A DNA stretch of 32,444 nt from a virus. The notes under the pieces were generated by a model. That model saw nothing but the letters and a program-made list of their open reading frames with translations. It was not told where the DNA came from and did not search any database. Shown in pieces: positions 20,868 through 27,136 of this stretch. The first letter of the stretch is position 1. Each line of letters begins with the position of its first letter. Location of the stretch: the IMG/VR virus record IMGVR_UViG_3300011115_000375, positions 1-32,444 of that record; one strand, given 5' to 3'. Position numbers and translations under genes: made by a program.

Positions 20868-22094
20868 TTATGCGGCTTTCTTTAATGAAATGAACGGATT
20901 ACCATTTGATTCTAACGTTGCTGTCTGTCCTGTGAATGCCTGCCAGCGCTTGATGATCACATCGACATACTTTGGATCCAGTTCCATCAACCGCGCGCGC
21001 CGGCCTGACTTCTCACAGGCGATAACCGTAGTGCCTGACCCGCCGAACGGGTCGAGCACGATGTCGCGCGTCTTGCTGCTGTTGCGCACCGCGCGCTCCA
21101 TCAACTCCACGGGCTTCATGGTTGGATGAAGATCGTTCTTGTGTGGTTTCTTGATCTGCCACACGTCACCTTGATCGCGCGCACCGCACCAGTAGTGCTG
21201 CGCACCGTCCTTCCATCCGTACAGGATCGGCTCGTACTGGCGCTGGTAATCCGCACGGCCCATGGTGAATGTGTTCTTCGCCCAGATCACGAACGTGGAC
21301 CACTTGCCACCGGCAGCGCGGAATGCGGCCTGCAGGGTGTCGAGTTCCGATGAACTCATCGCGATGTAGACCGCGCCCTTGGTGACGGCTAGAATGTTTT
21401 GGCAAGCAAGCAGCAGAAACGCTGAGAAGTCCGCACCCATGTTGTCGTTCAAGATTGGCCGATGGGTGCCGCGCATTTTGTCCTTGGCGGTGTTGGCGTA
21501 ATTCACGTTGTAGGGCGGGTCGGTCACCGTCATGTCGGCCAACTCGTCCCCGAGCAGCGCCTTGTAATCTTCGGCCTTGGTGGCGTCACCACAGATGACT
21601 TTGTGCTCGCCCAGCAGCCACACATCGCCGGGCTTTGTGACCGCATCGTCGGTGACCTCGGGCACAGCGTCCTCGTCTGTCAGCCCATCCGTCCCTACTG
21701 GCGCCAGCAGCGCCTCGATCTCGTCGGTGCTAAAGCCAGTCAAGTCAAGGTCGAAGCCCATGTCCTTCAGGTCGGTAAGTTCCACCGCCAACATCTCGTC
21801 ATCCCAGCCCGCATTCAGCGCCAGCTTGTTGTCGGCAATGATGTAGGCTTTCTTCTGCGTTTCGGTCAGATGGGTTAGCCGAATGCTGGGAACGTCAGTA
21901 ATTGACAGCTTCCGCGCTGCCATCACCCTACCGTGTCCGGCAATAATGCTCCCTGTCTCGTCAATCAGGACGGGATTGGTAAAGCCAAATTCTTTAATGC
22001 TTGCGGCAATTTGCGCCACTTGATTTTCAGAGTGAGTACGGCTATTCCTGGCATAAGGGATTAGCTTGTCAATCTTAACTTGCTCAATAATCAT
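20868..22094 (-). CDS. ParB-N domain fused to DNA N4/N6 methyltransferase
   Basis: This is a 408-aa protein. Residues 1-100 are a ParB-like N-terminal domain with the nucleotide-binding GHGR at 53-56 (AGHGRVMAA). A linker rich in Asp/Glu follows (about 130-158). From 160 the methyltransferase domain has VICGDA, TDPPYNV at 191-197 (catalytic motif IV), FVIWAKNTFTMGRADYQRQYEP and DPFGGSGTT at 348-356 (motif I). The order motif IV before motif I is the beta class. It would methylate adenine N6 or cytosine N4; the target is not readable. No restriction partner is present, so protection against host restriction or packaging-site marking are the likely roles. It overlaps the preceding 54-aa gene as ATGA. 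Confidence 0.85.
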   Translation of the reverse strand: MIIEQVKIDKLIPYARNSRTHSENQVAQIAASIKEFGFTNPVLIDETGSIIAGHGRVMAARKLSITDVPSIRLTHLTETQKKAYIIADNKLALNAGWDDEMLAVELTDLKDMGFDLDLTGFSTDEIEALLAPVGTDGLTDEDAVPEVTDDAVTKPGDVWLLGEHKVICGDATKAEDYKALLGDELADMTVTDPPYNVNYANTAKDKMRGTHRPILNDNMGADFSAFLLLACQNILAVTKGAVYIAMSSSELDTLQAAFRAAGGKWSTFVIWAKNTFTMGRADYQRQYEPILYGWKDGAQHYWCGARDQGDVWQIKKPHKNDLHPTMKPVELMERAVRNSSKTRDIVLDPFGGSGTTVIACEKSGRRARLMELDPKYVDVIIKRWQAFTGQTATLESNGNPFISLKKAA

Positions 22095-23242: not shown

Positions 23243-23713
23243 TTAAACTGACACCCTGTTACCAGTAATAACCCCAACCTCACGGCAATCCCGTAAAAAC
23301 TTGTCAGCAGCAGATCCAATACCAAAATGGTTTGCTTGCCTGATGATAAAGTCGACCTGCGCTTGATTCACAACTTTTTCCGTAGTCCACCAGCGGCCAC
23401 CTGGGGACTTTTTGATAGTTGCGTTCAGCTTCTCGACCTGCTCCGGTGTAGGCAGAGACTTTACCGGCGGAGGCAGAGCCCGGACTACGACAGAGTGGTC
23501 AACCAGCAAGGCTTTAAACTGCCCAAACGTCGGTGGCCATTCAGGGAATTCAGTCGGCAGCCTTGCCAGAGCAGCGACAACATCACCGTCCATTGTTGAC
23601 CAAAGCTCAATCCAGCTATCAACTTCGCTTTCACTTTTAAACAATGCAGTAAATTTCTGTGCGTACATATCCTTGAAAACTTGATGCAGCCTGACCGACC
23701 ACGATCTTTTCAT
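23243..23713 (-). CDS. Possible helicase-loader/replication P-like protein
   Basis: This is a 156-aa protein with ATG 23713 overlapping the DUF1376 stop as TAATG; a TTG 15 bases upstream is less likely. Residues about 55-70 contain LPTEFPEWPPTFGQFKALL, which resembles a motif in replication proteins following DUF1376 or O-type genes, comparable to lambda P. The rest is helical with no Walker motif, so it is not an ATPase. The neighbour order initiator then loader is the argument. The C-terminal half is a helical segment, and helicase-loader function is an inference. Confidence 0.4.
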   Translation of the reverse strand: MKRSWSVRLHQVFKDMYAQKFTALFKSESEVDSWIELWSTMDGDVVAALARLPTEFPEWPPTFGQFKALLVDHSVVVRALPPPVKSLPTPEQVEKLNATIKKSPGGRWWTTEKVVNQAQVDFIIRQANHFGIGSAADKFLRDCREVGVITGNRVSV

Positions 23714-24429
23714 TAGATTGACTCCCAAGGATTTGTAGATTCTTTCTCCAATTCGCGCTGCAAAATCCTTTGTGTAGCAGCTCCTAAATCAAAAGGTTCA
23801 ACTTTAACCTTCATCCATTCTGCTTTAAACCCCGTCCAGCCGCGGGCGCAGCACTCAACTAAAGCGGCTTCCAGAGATATGCCAGCCTTGGCAGCTTCTT
23901 TGTCAATCCTGCTAAGAGCCGAGCTCGTCAACGGTGCTTTTTTAGCTCGGCGCAGGGTTTGGAAGTCGCTCCAGACCTGCTCAGATACCGTTTCGGGACG
24001 ATTACAGTCGCGTTTAGCGACTATAGTTTTTGATGTACTAGTTAATGTTTTATGGTTATTGGTTATTGGTTGTTGGTTATTGGTTAGTTGAACGTCCGTT
24101 GAACGTCCGTTGCGCCTTACCTCTGCGGATGCCTTGCCCGCCCTTGATGCCTGATCAAATTTTGATGCGTAATGCATTATTTCGCGGTCGGCTCTTTTGT
24201 TAATCCACGCGTCCTCTTTATTGGTAAAAAACGACTTCAAAACAAAAGCAACCTCGGCCTGATAATCTTTCATGCCAATCTGCCGAGCAACGTCCGTTAT
24301 ACATCCGTTCAACGGGCGTTCATGCAGATAGTATTCATCCAGCAGCTTGCGATATGCCAAATCTTCGAGCAGGGATAAGTTTCTTGTGTGGCTGGCGTAA
24401 TCGCCAATATTAAACTGGTAATAGTGCAC
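23713..24429 (-). CDS. DUF1376-containing replication initiator-like protein
   Basis: The start is GTG 24429 (238 aa), with AAGGAG 6 bases upstream. The N-terminus HYYQFNIGDYASHTRNLSLL and then EDLAYRKLLDEYYLHERPL is the DUF1376 domain (residues 2-100), common in phage and plasmid replication proteins. A low-complexity hinge (about 116-140) has tandem Asn/Gln/Thr residues encoded by DNA repeats, followed by a helical C-terminus. It probably initiates leftward replication, as lambda O does, with iterons inside its gene. Its start region is sequestered in a long RNA stem, so its level is likely controlled at translation. The gene before it is a 43-aa leader frame. Confidence 0.7.
   Translation of the reverse strand: MHYYQFNIGDYASHTRNLSLLEDLAYRKLLDEYYLHERPLNGCITDVARQIGMKDYQAEVAFVLKSFFTNKEDAWINKRADREIMHYASKFDQASRAGKASAEVRRNGRSTDVQLTNNQQPITNNHKTLTSTSKTIVAKRDCNRPETVSEQVWSDFQTLRRAKKAPLTSSALSRIDKEAAKAGISLEAALVECCARGWTGFKAEWMKVKVEPFDLGAATQRILQRELEKESTNPWESI
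24054..24112. repeat. Tandem 7-mer and 11-mer repeats inside the DUF1376 gene; candidate origin
   Basis: Five tandem copies of a 7-base unit GGTTATT (with one- or two-base variations) span 24054-24088. Immediately next, TTGAACGTCCG is repeated exactly at 24088-24098 and 24099-24109. AACGTCCGTT recurs at 24289-24298, and CCGTTCAACGG forms a palindrome at 24305-24315. The 7-base period is not a multiple of 3, so protein selection is not its source. Repeats within an initiator gene are the pattern of lambda-type origins. Confidence 0.5.
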
Positions 24430-24529: not shown

Positions 24530-24583
24530 AATCCGACGCTCTTTACGCTTCTCACGGCGTATACAAATAATATTACGTGCCAT
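24452..24583 (-). CDS. 43-aa leader peptide frame, possible translational coupler
   Basis: This frame starts at ATG 24583, overlapping the preceding zinc-ribbon stop by 11 bases. It encodes MARNIICIRREKRKERRINS, then LLWAGLSDRFNPSRVPTSGI and LTG. No strong Shine-Dalgarno is present, so it would be translated by coupling to the upstream gene. It is basic at its N-terminus, and its stop lies inside the base-paired region of the hairpin described here. Whether the peptide matters or only its translation does cannot be told. It could also be chance. Confidence 0.35.
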   Translation of the reverse strand: MARNIICIRREKRKERRINSLLWAGLSDRFNPSRVPTSGILTG

Positions 24584-24797
24584 TTTTAATTGCAAGCATT
24601 TCATTTCGCAGCTCGACAGCAGCATCCACGCCCCGTTTCTGCCGGATCTTCTCTAGATATTCTTTCCGATCCTTCCTCGCAAGCACCATTCGAGCCTCGC
24701 ACTCCAGCCGCCATGCGTTGCAGCTCGAGCACACTACCCGGCCATCACGCAGCAACACTGGCGCGGTAGATAGGTGTTTGCAGTTGCGGCAATCCAT
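24573..24797 (-). CDS. Zinc-ribbon phage protein
   Basis: This is a 74-aa protein with two Cys pairs, C3-x2-C6 and C23-x2-C26, the layout of a zinc ribbon that binds DNA, RNA or protein. From residue 30 it is a charged helix (CEARMVLARKDRKEYLEKIR, then QKRGVDAAVELRNEMLA). It starts at ATG 24797, overlapping the HTH gene's stop as TAATG. Its place among replication and regulation genes fits a small DNA- or protein-binding regulator. I cannot name a family with certainty. Confidence 0.6.
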   Translation of the reverse strand: MDCRNCKHLSTAPVLLRDGRVVCSSCNAWRLECEARMVLARKDRKEYLEKIRQKRGVDAAVELRNEMLAIKNGT

Positions 24798-24955
24798 TAT
24801 CTAATCACTCTAGTTCGATACTCGCACCAGTCGCGCACAGTCCACATGCTGACATCGTAAAAGGCAGCGATCACGCTGTAAGACTTGCCGAACCGCTGCC
24901 GCTGGTGACGAGCTTCCTGCACTATGCTGAAGGGTATTTTTGCTTTGTGGTGCAT
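24797..24955 (-). CDS. Small helix-turn-helix protein
   Basis: I choose ATG 24955 (52 aa) because GAGGAGAT lies 5 bases upstream; an upstream in-frame start is weaker. Residues about 8-46 fit a helix-turn-helix of the resolvase/transposase-type fold: FSIVQEARHQRQRFGKSYSV followed by IAAFYDVSMWTVRDWC, in which the second helix should contact DNA. It overlaps the end of the C5 methyltransferase by 34 bases. It could regulate the early operon; its target is unknown. Confidence 0.65.
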   Translation of the reverse strand: MHHKAKIPFSIVQEARHQRQRFGKSYSVIAAFYDVSMWTVRDWCEYRTRVIR

Positions 24956-26388
24956 GATATCTCCTCTACTTGTTGAATTCGTTTGCCAATCCATGCCATC
25001 ACCGGCACCGCCATCGAATTGCCCAGCGCCTTGTAGCGCGGCCCATCTGCGGCTGGTTTGTTACGGTAGGGAACCTGCGTATAGTCGTCGGGGAAGCCTT
25101 GCAGGCGCTCGCATTCCTGCGGGGTCAGGCGGCGCACTTGCATGGCGGTGGCAACTGCCATCTGATTATCGCCCGGCTCTTTCCGCAAAGTGCCGCTAAT
25201 GTTTTCATGGTGGTGCCCGCCTTCTCGCCCCATGATTCCAGGCTCAAACGCCACAGCAACTGTCTGGCACTTTGCCAGCGTAGGCGCGGTGCCGCGCTCC
25301 TGGTCATAGCCCAGCGTGGTCTGTGCGCCGCTGGCCTGATGGGCGAAAGCCACCGCACACGGCTGCGCCCGATCCAGCGTAGGCGCAACCTCTGCCGCCA
25401 CGCCCAGCCCGTTTGCTCCTGTGTTGGCGGTAATCATTGAATACATGACAGCATGCTGATCGGATTTCGTAAGCGTGAAACTTTGTCCATCCTCAGAGAA
25501 TCCCGATCCTGCCGGACCTGCCGTGTCGCTGCGACCTATCATGCTGCCCTGAATCGCCACCGTCACCAACGGCGCCTCATGATTGCAGTTAAGCGTTGTC
25601 CCAATCCCAATCCCAATCTCGGCGCCGGCTTGGCCGGTGGACATGACAATCGCCGGTAGCGGTCTGCCGCCCCCTGTTGGAGATCCTTTTAGTAAAGGAC
25701 CGGTCGGATCATTTGGACCATGACCGTTGTTCTCATAATCAATCCCGCGGATCAATTCTTTTGTATCATAGTCTGCGCCACCTGTTTCAAGGCTTGCTGT
25801 AACTGTTTTGGCAACTCTTTTCCCCGCTTCTCTGCGCGGCGCAGTATGCCTTTGCAAGCTGTGGCGCTCAAAAAGAACCGCTGCGGCACGTTGCCAACTT
25901 CCAAGATGTCCGACAACGAACACGCGACGGCGCCGCTGGGGAACTCCAAAGTGCTGAGCGTCAAGAATTCGGTAGGCGAACCCATACCCGCATTCCCCCA
26001 TCCCTCGAAGCAAGCTGGCAAAGTCTCGTCCTTCGTTAGAGGAAAGGACGCCGGGGAAGTTCTCCCAAACCAGCCAGCGGGGCCGATATTTTGCAGCAAT
26101 GGCAAGATACGTAAGCATGAGGTTGCCACGCGGATCATCCAGTCCCTTTCGGAGTCCTGCGACGCTGAAGGACTGGCATGGAGTTCCTCCGACGAGAACA
26201 TCGACAACTGCATCAGGCCACTCCTTGAATTTAGTCATGTCGCCCCAGTTGGGCACGTTTGGATAGTGATGCGCTAACGCGGCGCAGGGGAACGGCTCAA
26301 TCTCAGAAAAGGCAACAGGTTTCCAGCCTAACGAATGCCAGCCGACTGTAGCCGCCTCGATTCCGCTACAGACTGACAAGTAATTCAT
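24922..26388 (-). CDS. C5 cytosine-specific DNA methyltransferase
   Basis: This is a 488-aa protein with the full set of C5 methyltransferase motifs: LSVCSGIEAATVGWHSLGW (I, residues 4-22), GGTPCQSFS with the nucleophile C71 (IV), WENFPG (VI, 108-113), QRRRRVF (VIII, 151-157), LTPQECERLQGFPDDY (IX, 421-436) and GNSMAVPV (X, 457-464). It transfers methyl from SAM to carbon 5 of cytosine in a target not identifiable here. Residues about 195-418, the target-recognition part, hold several repeats of the form TL..........AVA. With no endonuclease beside it, it probably protects phage DNA or marks it. It starts at ATG 26388, inside the end of the truncated gene at 26366-26551. Confidence 0.9.
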   Translation of the reverse strand: MNYLSVCSGIEAATVGWHSLGWKPVAFSEIEPFPCAALAHHYPNVPNWGDMTKFKEWPDAVVDVLVGGTPCQSFSVAGLRKGLDDPRGNLMLTYLAIAAKYRPRWLVWENFPGVLSSNEGRDFASLLRGMGECGYGFAYRILDAQHFGVPQRRRRVFVVGHLGSWQRAAAVLFERHSLQRHTAPRREAGKRVAKTVTASLETGGADYDTKELIRGIDYENNGHGPNDPTGPLLKGSPTGGGRPLPAIVMSTGQAGAEIGIGIGTTLNCNHEAPLVTVAIQGSMIGRSDTAGPAGSGFSEDGQSFTLTKSDQHAVMYSMITANTGANGLGVAAEVAPTLDRAQPCAVAFAHQASGAQTTLGYDQERGTAPTLAKCQTVAVAFEPGIMGREGGHHHENISGTLRKEPGDNQMAVATAMQVRRLTPQECERLQGFPDDYTQVPYRNKPAADGPRYKALGNSMAVPVMAWIGKRIQQVEEISCTTKQKYPSA

Positions 26389-26551: not shown

Positions 26552-26766
26552 GCCACCGCCCATGTTTTTCCGAACAGAACAACATGGCAGGAATGATGCA
26601 AACTGCCGTTTTTCGTTTCGCCATGTTTCAGGACCACGTATTTAGTTCCACTCGGCGTTTCGCGTTTTATTTCTATCATCGTGAATTCTTCGTTAGATCT
26701 GATTAGTAGGAATCTATGACCAACCGGAACATGACGAACGCATATCTGATTAAGATTATTTTTCAC
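26548..26766 (-). CDS. Small early-operon protein, unknown
   Basis: This frame of about 72 aa probably starts at GTG 26766, overlapping the stop of the alpha-CTD-like gene; a GTG 21 bases upstream is also in frame. The central part HVPVGHRFLLIRSNEEFTMI and then EIKRETPSGTKYVVLKHGET is mixed beta with many His residues. I recognise no domain. It is followed by the methylase relic as GTGA. Its composition does not stand out from the neighbours. Confidence 0.5.
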   Translation of the reverse strand: MKNNLNQICVRHVPVGHRFLLIRSNEEFTMIEIKRETPSGTKYVVLKHGETKNGSLHHSCHVVLFGKTWAVA

Positions 26767-27136
26767 TCGGCACCGCCAACTTTTCACCGACCGCGGCCAG
26801 CGCAGTTATTAAATGCGCGAGCTGTGTGCGGCCGATGTTCGGAACTCTCAAAATCTCCTTTTCCGTATAAGAGCAAATGTCGGCGATCGTATACAAATCT
26901 TCCGACAGCAGAGCGTAATGCAGCCGTGTTCCGAGTTTCAGCGTTCGCATATCGCTGTTGTTTCGTCTCTCGTTCAGCGCAGCCATGTCCATTCGTTTCT
27001 GTCGTTCACTCATCATAAATTCTGCACACTGCCAGGCGCTGTTCGCGACATCAGCATAGTGCGGTGATGAGTTTGATGAACGCTGCAAAAGCGCAGCCAT
27101 CGCCGCGAGCGCAAACTGATCTTTGAGATCATGCAT
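26756..27136 (-). CDS. Phage protein with RNA polymerase alpha-CTD-like domain
   Basis: This is a 126-aa protein. Residues 1-48 (MHDLKDQFALAAMAALLQRS, then YADVANSAWQCAEFMMSERQ) match a common small phage protein helix pair. Residues 70-120 are a helix-hairpin-helix like the C-terminal domain of RpoA: RLHYALLSEDLYTIADICSY, then TEKEILRVPNIGRTQLAHLI. The pattern TE.E.L..PN.G...L matches RpoA TEVELLKTPNLGKKSL. By eye, R71 aligns with RpoA R265, but N268 is Tyr here. The domain may bind promoter DNA or compete with host RNA polymerase. It starts at ATG 27136, overlapping the Cro-like gene by 8 bases. Confidence 0.7.
   Translation of the reverse strand: MHDLKDQFALAAMAALLQRSSNSSPHYADVANSAWQCAEFMMSERQKRMDMAALNERRNNSDMRTLKLGTRLHYALLSEDLYTIADICSYTEKEILRVPNIGRTQLAHLITALAAVGEKLAVPSEK

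What the first reader, a model, noticed from the sequence alone, without database searches (positions are those of the whole stretch)
24054..24320. Iteron-like repeats inside the DUF1376 gene
Five 7-base units (GGTTATT-like) in a row, then two exact 11-base units TTGAACGTCCG, and further copies of AACGTCCGTT at 24289 with a CCGTT/AACGG palindrome. A 7-base period ignores the reading frame. Lambda ori lies in the O gene in the same way.
Basis: partly seen in the sequence, partly recalled or inferred. Interest (0 to 1): 0.6.

Follow-up and report, generated by a model that had tools for sequence, protein, structure and literature searches.

The report
Phage replication origin hidden in gene
Short DNA repeats inside a phage gene for a probable replication starter protein are kept by selection at the DNA level across many phages, so this stretch most likely does two jobs: it codes for the protein's flexible linker and it is the place where copying of the phage genome starts.

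Summary
The repeats are real and far beyond chance. Read along the DUF1376 gene (24429-23713, minus strand) there are three DNA modules: 11-bp dyad repeats AACGnnCGTTn inside the N-domain (24320-24289), the same dyads in the linker (24112-24087), and next to them a 7-bp array AACCAAY (24086-24045). All exact AACGnnCGTT sites of the 32-kb record lie here, and so does its strongest 7-bp periodicity.

In 97 dereplicated relatives, chosen by the N-domain alone, the linker keeps 7-bp periodicity beyond synonymous-codon expectation in 88%, and 11-bp periodicity in 51%; 7-bp periodicity elsewhere in the gene is about 1%. Base 7 of AACCAAn is T in 144 of 164 units where that is legal, and in 0 of 60 where T would make a stop codon. 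A DNA-only scan for the 7-mers returned mostly DUF1376 genes. Both modules co-vary with the N-domain (modelled as a winged helix), not the C-domain.

Best reading: a lambda-like replication origin inside its initiator gene, the dyads being double-strand binding sites and the 69% A+T array the unwinding element. Binding, unwinding and start-site use are inferred. Origins inside initiator genes are known; this composite architecture appears undescribed.

The parts
23713..24429 (-). DUF1376 gene, probable replication initiator (238 aa from GTG 24429-24427, preceded by an AAGGAG-like ribosome site): N-domain about residues 1-105, linker about 107-148, C-domain about 149-230
   Evidence: Pfam PF07120 E=1.2e-20; PHROG primosomal and O-like; AF2 model; start and ribosome site read from the sequence
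24289..24320 (-). Upstream cluster of 11-bp dyads inside the N-domain coding sequence: AACGnnCGTT at 24311 and 24289, degenerate copy between them at 24300
   Evidence: second-best lag-11 self-match of the window; p=0.002 against synonymous recoding; same place in relatives
24087..24112 (-). Linker cluster of 11-bp dyads, CAACGGACGTTCAACGGACGTTCAAC (encodes NGRSTDVQ)
   Evidence: p=5e-5 against synonymous recoding; 51% of 97 relatives show lag-11 periodicity
24045..24086 (-). 7-bp array (AACCAAY)x5 plus a degenerate sixth unit, encoding TNNQQPITNNHK; candidate DNA unwinding element
   Evidence: 88% of 97 relatives show lag-7 periodicity
24010..24044 (-). A+T-rich stretch following the array (AAAACTATAGTCGC side), possible extension of the unwinding element
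   Evidence: read from the sequence; in relatives this flank is not notably A+T-rich, so weak
23243..23728 (-). Next gene downstream (161 aa, start uncertain), in the place where relatives carry a helicase loader, DnaB or P gene; no family match itself
   Evidence: no match; position compared

Best explanation
The stretch 24045-24320 is most likely the phage's replication origin, embedded in the gene of its own initiator. Proposed course: the winged-helix N-domain of the DUF1376 protein binds the 11-bp dyads (one helical turn apart) in the linker cluster and in the upstream cluster about 200 bp away and builds a nucleoprotein complex; strain opens the adjacent A+T-rich 7-mer array, one strand of which may be held by repeated contacts with the initiator; the C-domain then hands DnaB on through a loader encoded downstream. 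Shown here: the repeats, their selection at DNA level, their restriction to this gene in the genomes searched, conserved layout, gene family and gene order, a winged-helix-like model, and co-variation of both modules with the N-domain. Inferred: which protein binds which module, unwinding, and that forks start here.
For: Uniqueness in the window and p=5e-5 to 1.5e-4 against synonymous recoding. 97 relatives sampled by N-domain only: lag 7 significant in 88%, lag 14 in 87%, lag 11 in 51%; lag 7 about 1% in N- and C-parts. Base 7 of AACCAAn is T in 144/164 legal positions and 0/60 stop-making ones; Ile is ATA in 80% of linker against 27% elsewhere. Linker dyad motif recurs in the N-domain DNA beyond codon expectation in 31% of genes, controls 1.3%; in 15 of 20 whole virus records the tandem dyad occurs, nearly always at these one or two clusters, reversed-pattern control 0. 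Modules co-vary with N-domain given C-domain (partial r 0.49 and 0.31, p=0.001), not the converse. Array 69% A+T between a 46-48% A+T upstream and about 56% downstream flank. PHROG O-like/primosomal; helicase loader, DnaB or P next door in annotated phages. N-domain matches winged helices.
Against: No binding, unwinding or start-site data. GC skew follows transcription and does not turn here. The window's next gene has no loader match. Some DUF1376 genes lack a 7-bp array: E. coli Rac ydaU, Pseudomonas AH02 (6-bp), PfDIW6 (5-bp), and remote family members show none. Winged-helix matches are below Z 8.
Confidence: 0.82

Rival explanations
1. Protein-level cause: the linker is a low-complexity spacer (TNNQQPI heptads) made by slippage or kept for its amino acids, and the DNA repeat is a by-product.
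For: The linker is predicted disordered and low-complexity linkers tolerate repeats.
Against: Codon choice exceeds synonymous expectation for 7-bp lag in 88% of genes; rare ATA is used for Ile; base 7 follows stop avoidance rather than residue identity. Different units (AAACAAn, ACACAAG, ACCCAAT) change residues but keep the period. The 11-bp motif is shared with the folded N-domain's DNA.
Confidence: 0.04
2. Regulatory operator: the 11-bp dyads bind a repressor or the DUF1376 protein to autoregulate the replication operon, and the origin lies elsewhere.
For: Dyad symmetry and two clusters about 200 bp apart look like looped operators; the motif is nearly absent elsewhere in the genomes.
Against: Does not explain the 7-bp array directly beside the dyads or its co-variation with the initiator's N-domain; sites lie 110-345 bp inside the gene rather than at a promoter.
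Confidence: 0.07
3. RNA-level element: the AACCAAU repeats act in the mRNA (for example as a landing site of an RNA-binding protein) to control translation of the initiator.
For: The repeats always lie on the coding strand (reverse strand 0 of 97).
Against: The coding strand does not fold specially as single-stranded DNA (no RNA fold was run); the adjoining palindromic 11-bp module, with its second copy in the N-domain, points to duplex DNA. The fixed orientation also fits an origin with fixed polarity.
Confidence: 0.04
4. Recombination hot spot: repeats promote exchange of N- and C-domains between phages.
For: C-domains differ widely behind similar N-domains and linkers.
Against: A recombination signal alone would not need unit changes tracking the N-domain, nor dyads inside the N-domain gene part. 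Could be a side effect of an origin.
Confidence: 0.03

Closest known systems
ori-lambda in gene O and the Stx-phage origins
   Same: Origin repeats in the middle of the initiator gene, between its DNA-binding and helicase-recruiting halves, next to an A+T-rich stretch, with P next door (PMC7466680). The window protein's C-part matches PHROG O-like profiles.
   Different: Different N-domain (DUF1376); repeats of 11 bp and 7 bp instead of lambda-type iterons; the A+T-rich part is itself a tandem array; an extra dyad cluster lies about 200 bp upstream in the N-domain coding sequence.
Iteron plasmid origins (RK2, F) with repeats in the unwinding element
   Same: Double-strand sites plus a repeated A+T-rich unwinding element; winged-helix Rep proteins that also hold one strand of that element (review PMC10797057).
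   Different: There the origin is generally not written inside the Rep domain-linker coding sequence; unit lengths differ; no Rep homology was found here.
DnaA-box plus DnaA-trio/TTATT elements of bacterial oriC
   Same: Two-part logic: duplex sites beside short repeats read as single strand (PMC10797057). The non-coding strand here happens to contain TTATT and TTGTT.
   Different: Host DnaA AAA+ filament with 3-nt steps; here a phage winged-helix protein and 7-bp steps; other phages' 7-mers lack TTATT.
E. coli Rac prophage (ydaU, oriJ)
   Same: Rac carries a DUF1376 gene, ydaU, followed by an ATPase gene; the prophage is stated to have an active origin oriJ (PMC3945230). TGTTYAAACA-type sites are concentrated in ydaU, in N-domain and linker.
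   Different: No significant 7-bp array in ydaU; the exact position of oriJ was not found in the papers held; the Rac motifs were chosen after looking.

Membership tests
DUF1376 (PF07120) | Profile match above the curated cut-off | tested here: met
   74 bits against 30.1, residues 44-126 of the long ORF
Lambda-O-type in-gene phage origin | Tandem repeats inside the initiator gene, in the inter-domain linker | tested here: met
Lambda-O-type in-gene phage origin | Repeats held at DNA level, not only by the protein | tested here: met
Lambda-O-type in-gene phage origin | A+T-rich stretch adjoining the iterons | tested here: met
   array 69% A+T, upstream flank 46-48%
Lambda-O-type in-gene phage origin | Initiator related to O | tested here: inconclusive
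   C-part matches phrog_678 O-like (E=2.5e-16); the N-domain is DUF1376, not the O N-domain
Lambda-O-type in-gene phage origin | Lambda-type iterons (about 18-20 bp, own knowledge) | tested here: not met
   periods are 11 and 7 bp
Lambda-O-type in-gene phage origin | Helicase loader or P gene directly downstream | tested here: inconclusive
   no match in the window; present in annotated relatives
Lambda-O-type in-gene phage origin | Initiator binds the repeats and replication starts there | not testable with these tools
   needs binding and start-site experiments
Bacterial DnaA-trio/DnaA-box origin | 3-nt trio repeats next to DnaA boxes | tested here: not met
   periodicity is 7 and 11, none at 3-nt-multiple lags 6, 9, 12; DnaA boxes were not scanned
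Winged-helix DNA-binding fold of the N-domain | Structural match to winged helices | tested here: inconclusive
   most rows of the second look are winged helices, best Z 7.1 over 69 residues, rmsd 3.0; none above Z 8; Foldseek E-values not significant

The most novel reading that the evidence does not exclude
A two-step origin code written into a protein linker: 11-bp dyads read as duplex and 7-nt units read as single strand by the same phage initiator, a phage counterpart of the DnaA-box plus DnaA-trio logic, with the linker's amino-acid heptad dictated by the DNA repeat and its stop-codon avoidance, used across a large and mostly uncultured group of phages.
Probability: 0.35. Interest if true: 0.8.

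Novelty: new variant of a known kind. Interest (0 to 1): 0.63.

Why it matters
If true, the replication origin of a large group of proteobacterial phages and prophages, including many uncultured ones, can be read directly from sequence, and DUF1376, so far 'unknown function', becomes an origin-binding initiator domain. The array shows two codes in one stretch: a 7-bp DNA repeat sets a 7-residue protein repeat, and the single base that would make a stop codon is the one that is changed. It offers natural variants of both repeat types with matching N-domains, so the question whether an initiator reads duplex and single strand at two different spacings becomes directly testable.

Tried and rejected
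Reversed-pattern control scan of viral contigs was useless: the 7-mer read backwards still hits the same arrays. The broad alignment could not be used on genome contigs, and the window N-domain found no relative there, so the host of this phage stays unknown. GC and AT skew of the window and of four circular phage genomes follow transcription and do not mark the array. The coding strand of the region has no special fold as single-stranded DNA. Structure search gave no significant Foldseek match and no PDB sequence relative. Literature: five papers mention DUF1376, none as initiator or origin; other searches for 7-bp phage origin repeats found nothing relevant. Slippage or protein-only causes were rejected on codon evidence. 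Selection caution: one search used a seed inside the linker (NNQQPITN), so it was not used for frequencies; searches used the N-domain only. In one search, 11 of 106 ORFs were left out by hand (duplicates, cut ORFs or evident non-initiators), so the safe statement is at least 93 DUF1376 genes among 120 pattern hits.

Full report
What is there. The window is an IMG/VR virus record of 32,444 bp. On the minus strand, a GTG at 24429 preceded by an AAGGAG-like ribosome site starts a gene ending at 23713; its product matches Pfam DUF1376 and PHROG families annotated as primosomal and O-like initiation proteins. An AlphaFold2 model (50 sequences, mean pLDDT 82.7) shows a well-modelled N-domain (to about residue 108), a low-confidence linker (blocks near 50 for residues 111-140) and a helical C-domain. 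Most of the best structural matches of the N-domain are winged helices, at moderate scores (Z up to 7.1), so the fold is likely but not proven.

The repeats. Along the coding strand the gene contains (i) dyads AACGnnCGTT at 24320-24311 and 24298-24289 with a degenerate copy between, in the N-domain part; (ii) two exact dyads at 24111-24091 in the linker, in an 11-bp array CAACGGACGTTCAACGGACGTTCAAC; (iii) immediately after, the array AACCAAT AACCAAC AACCAAT AACCAAT AACCAT (24086-24052) with a degenerate sixth unit to 24045. These are the only exact AACGnnCGTT sites in 32 kb. In the window the strongest lag-7 match of the whole record is this array (25 of 28 against 16 for the next place), and the two strongest lag-11 matches are the two dyad clusters. 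In four complete circular phage genomes the strongest lag-7 place is also the DUF1376 linker (27 against 17, 21 against 17, 22 against 17, 24 against 18).

DNA or protein? A 7-bp repeat runs through all frames and repeats the protein every seven residues (TNNQQPI). A perfect AACCAAT array would place TAA in every frame; the window escapes by C for T in the one unit where it matters. To test whether the DNA itself is selected, proteins were recoded with synonymous codons. For the window: lag 7 p=1.5e-4, lag 11 p=5e-5, number of dyads p=2e-4. For 97 dereplicated relatives found with the N-domain only: lag 7 p<0.01 in 88%, lag 14 in 87%, lag 11 in 51%; the N- and C-parts show lag 7 in about 1%. 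The N-domain does show lag 11 in 32% (p<0.02), at codons about 35-48, where the upstream dyads lie. Base 7 of the unit AACCAAn is T in 56/62 and 88/102 units in the two frames where it is legal, and 0/60 where it would make TAA (47 G, 13 C); Ile in the linker is ATA in 80% against 27% elsewhere. So the DNA sequence is the thing kept and the amino acids largely follow it.

Breadth. In the N-domain sample 62 of 97 have at least two and 43 at least three AACCRAn units in tandem, 0 on the other strand. Others keep the period with another unit: AAACAAn, ACACAAG, ACCCAAT in a Vibrio phage, AACCAAG in Acinetobacter AbP2 and Thalassomonas BA3. In 15 named elements, 11 show a clear 7-bp array; exceptions are Pseudomonas AH02 (6-bp GATACA), PfDIW6 (5-bp), Bordetella IFTN2 (11-bp signal only) and Rac ydaU. 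Prophages of Alcaligenaceae and Psychrobacter show it too, as do several high-scoring DUF1376 genes drawn by profile from Gammaproteobacteria, whereas low-scoring remote family members do not.

Two modules, one reader? In 20 whole virus records the tandem dyad (up to 2 mismatches) occurs in 15, almost always in one or two clusters about 190-215 bp apart; in the records where I compared coordinates these lie in the DUF1376 gene. One further match (G003, 24153) lies several kb away. The reversed control pattern gives none. The linker motif recurs in the same gene's N-domain DNA beyond codon expectation in 31% of genes (p<0.05) against 1.3% in two controls. The spacing is partly fixed by protein length and is not separate evidence. 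Distances between dyad modules, and between 7-mer modules, follow N-domain distances when C-domain distance is held constant (partial r 0.49 and 0.31, p=0.001), not the reverse (0.05 and -0.04). This fits the N-domain as reader of both, though physical linkage could contribute to the first figure; the 7-mers lie nearer the C-domain, which makes linkage a poorer account of the second.

Function. Gene order supports a replication initiator: in annotated relatives the next gene is a P protein, IstB/DnaC-like loader, helicase loader or DnaB-like helicase, or a primase/helicase. The dyad modules are relatively G+C-rich (46-48% A+T) and the array is 69% A+T with a median of six units. This is the layout of an origin: duplex sites beside an unwinding element. 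Lambda and Stx phages have O-binding iterons and an A+T-rich stretch in the middle of gene O (PMC7466680); iteron-plasmid Rep proteins and DnaA also hold single strands of repeats in the unwinding element (PMC10797057). By analogy the 7-mers may be read as single strand, but this is inference.

Limits. Sequences in the sample are related, so the percentages are not independent trials; dereplication was by 90% identity over a 210-nt stretch including the linker. The codon null does not model codon-pair or mRNA effects. Motif types and the Rac motifs were chosen after looking. Nothing here shows binding or replication start, and skew gave no support. The paper library holds open-access texts only, so 'undescribed' means not found there.

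Noticed in passing
L214:9620-10477 (E. coli K-12 Rac ydaU): TGTTYAAACA-type sites (3) and ATGTTSAA sites (4) of the 12.5-kb Rac stretch all lie in ydaU, in N-domain and linker; Rac is reported to have an active origin, oriJ, whose exact place I could not find.
   Followed up: partly
window 20868-22094 (-): One ORF joins a weak ParB_N match (below its cut-off) with an N6_N4 DNA methylase domain.
   Followed up: no
window 24922-26388 (-): C5 cytosine methylase gene two genes upstream of the initiator, with an internal TCCCAA x3.3 repeat at 25599-25618.
   Followed up: no
window 26756-27136 (-): Small protein with a match to the RNA polymerase alpha C-terminal domain.
   Followed up: no
window 24573-24797 (-): DUF7696 protein directly upstream of the DUF1376 gene; family of unknown function.
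   Followed up: no
L115:214-269: AACCGAT-type 7-mer arrays in a virus contig outside any long ORF, possibly a stand-alone array or unrelated repeat.
   Followed up: no
L356 (Pseudomonas AH02), L361 (PfDIW6), L382: DUF1376 linkers with tandem units of 6 bp (GATACA, TTCCAG) or 5 bp (GAAGA) instead of 7; whether these are equivalent elements is open.
   Followed up: partly
L363-L366 and others (annotated phages): DUF1376 genes are annotated variously as hypothetical protein, antirepressor, glycoside hydrolase or primosomal protein.
   Followed up: no
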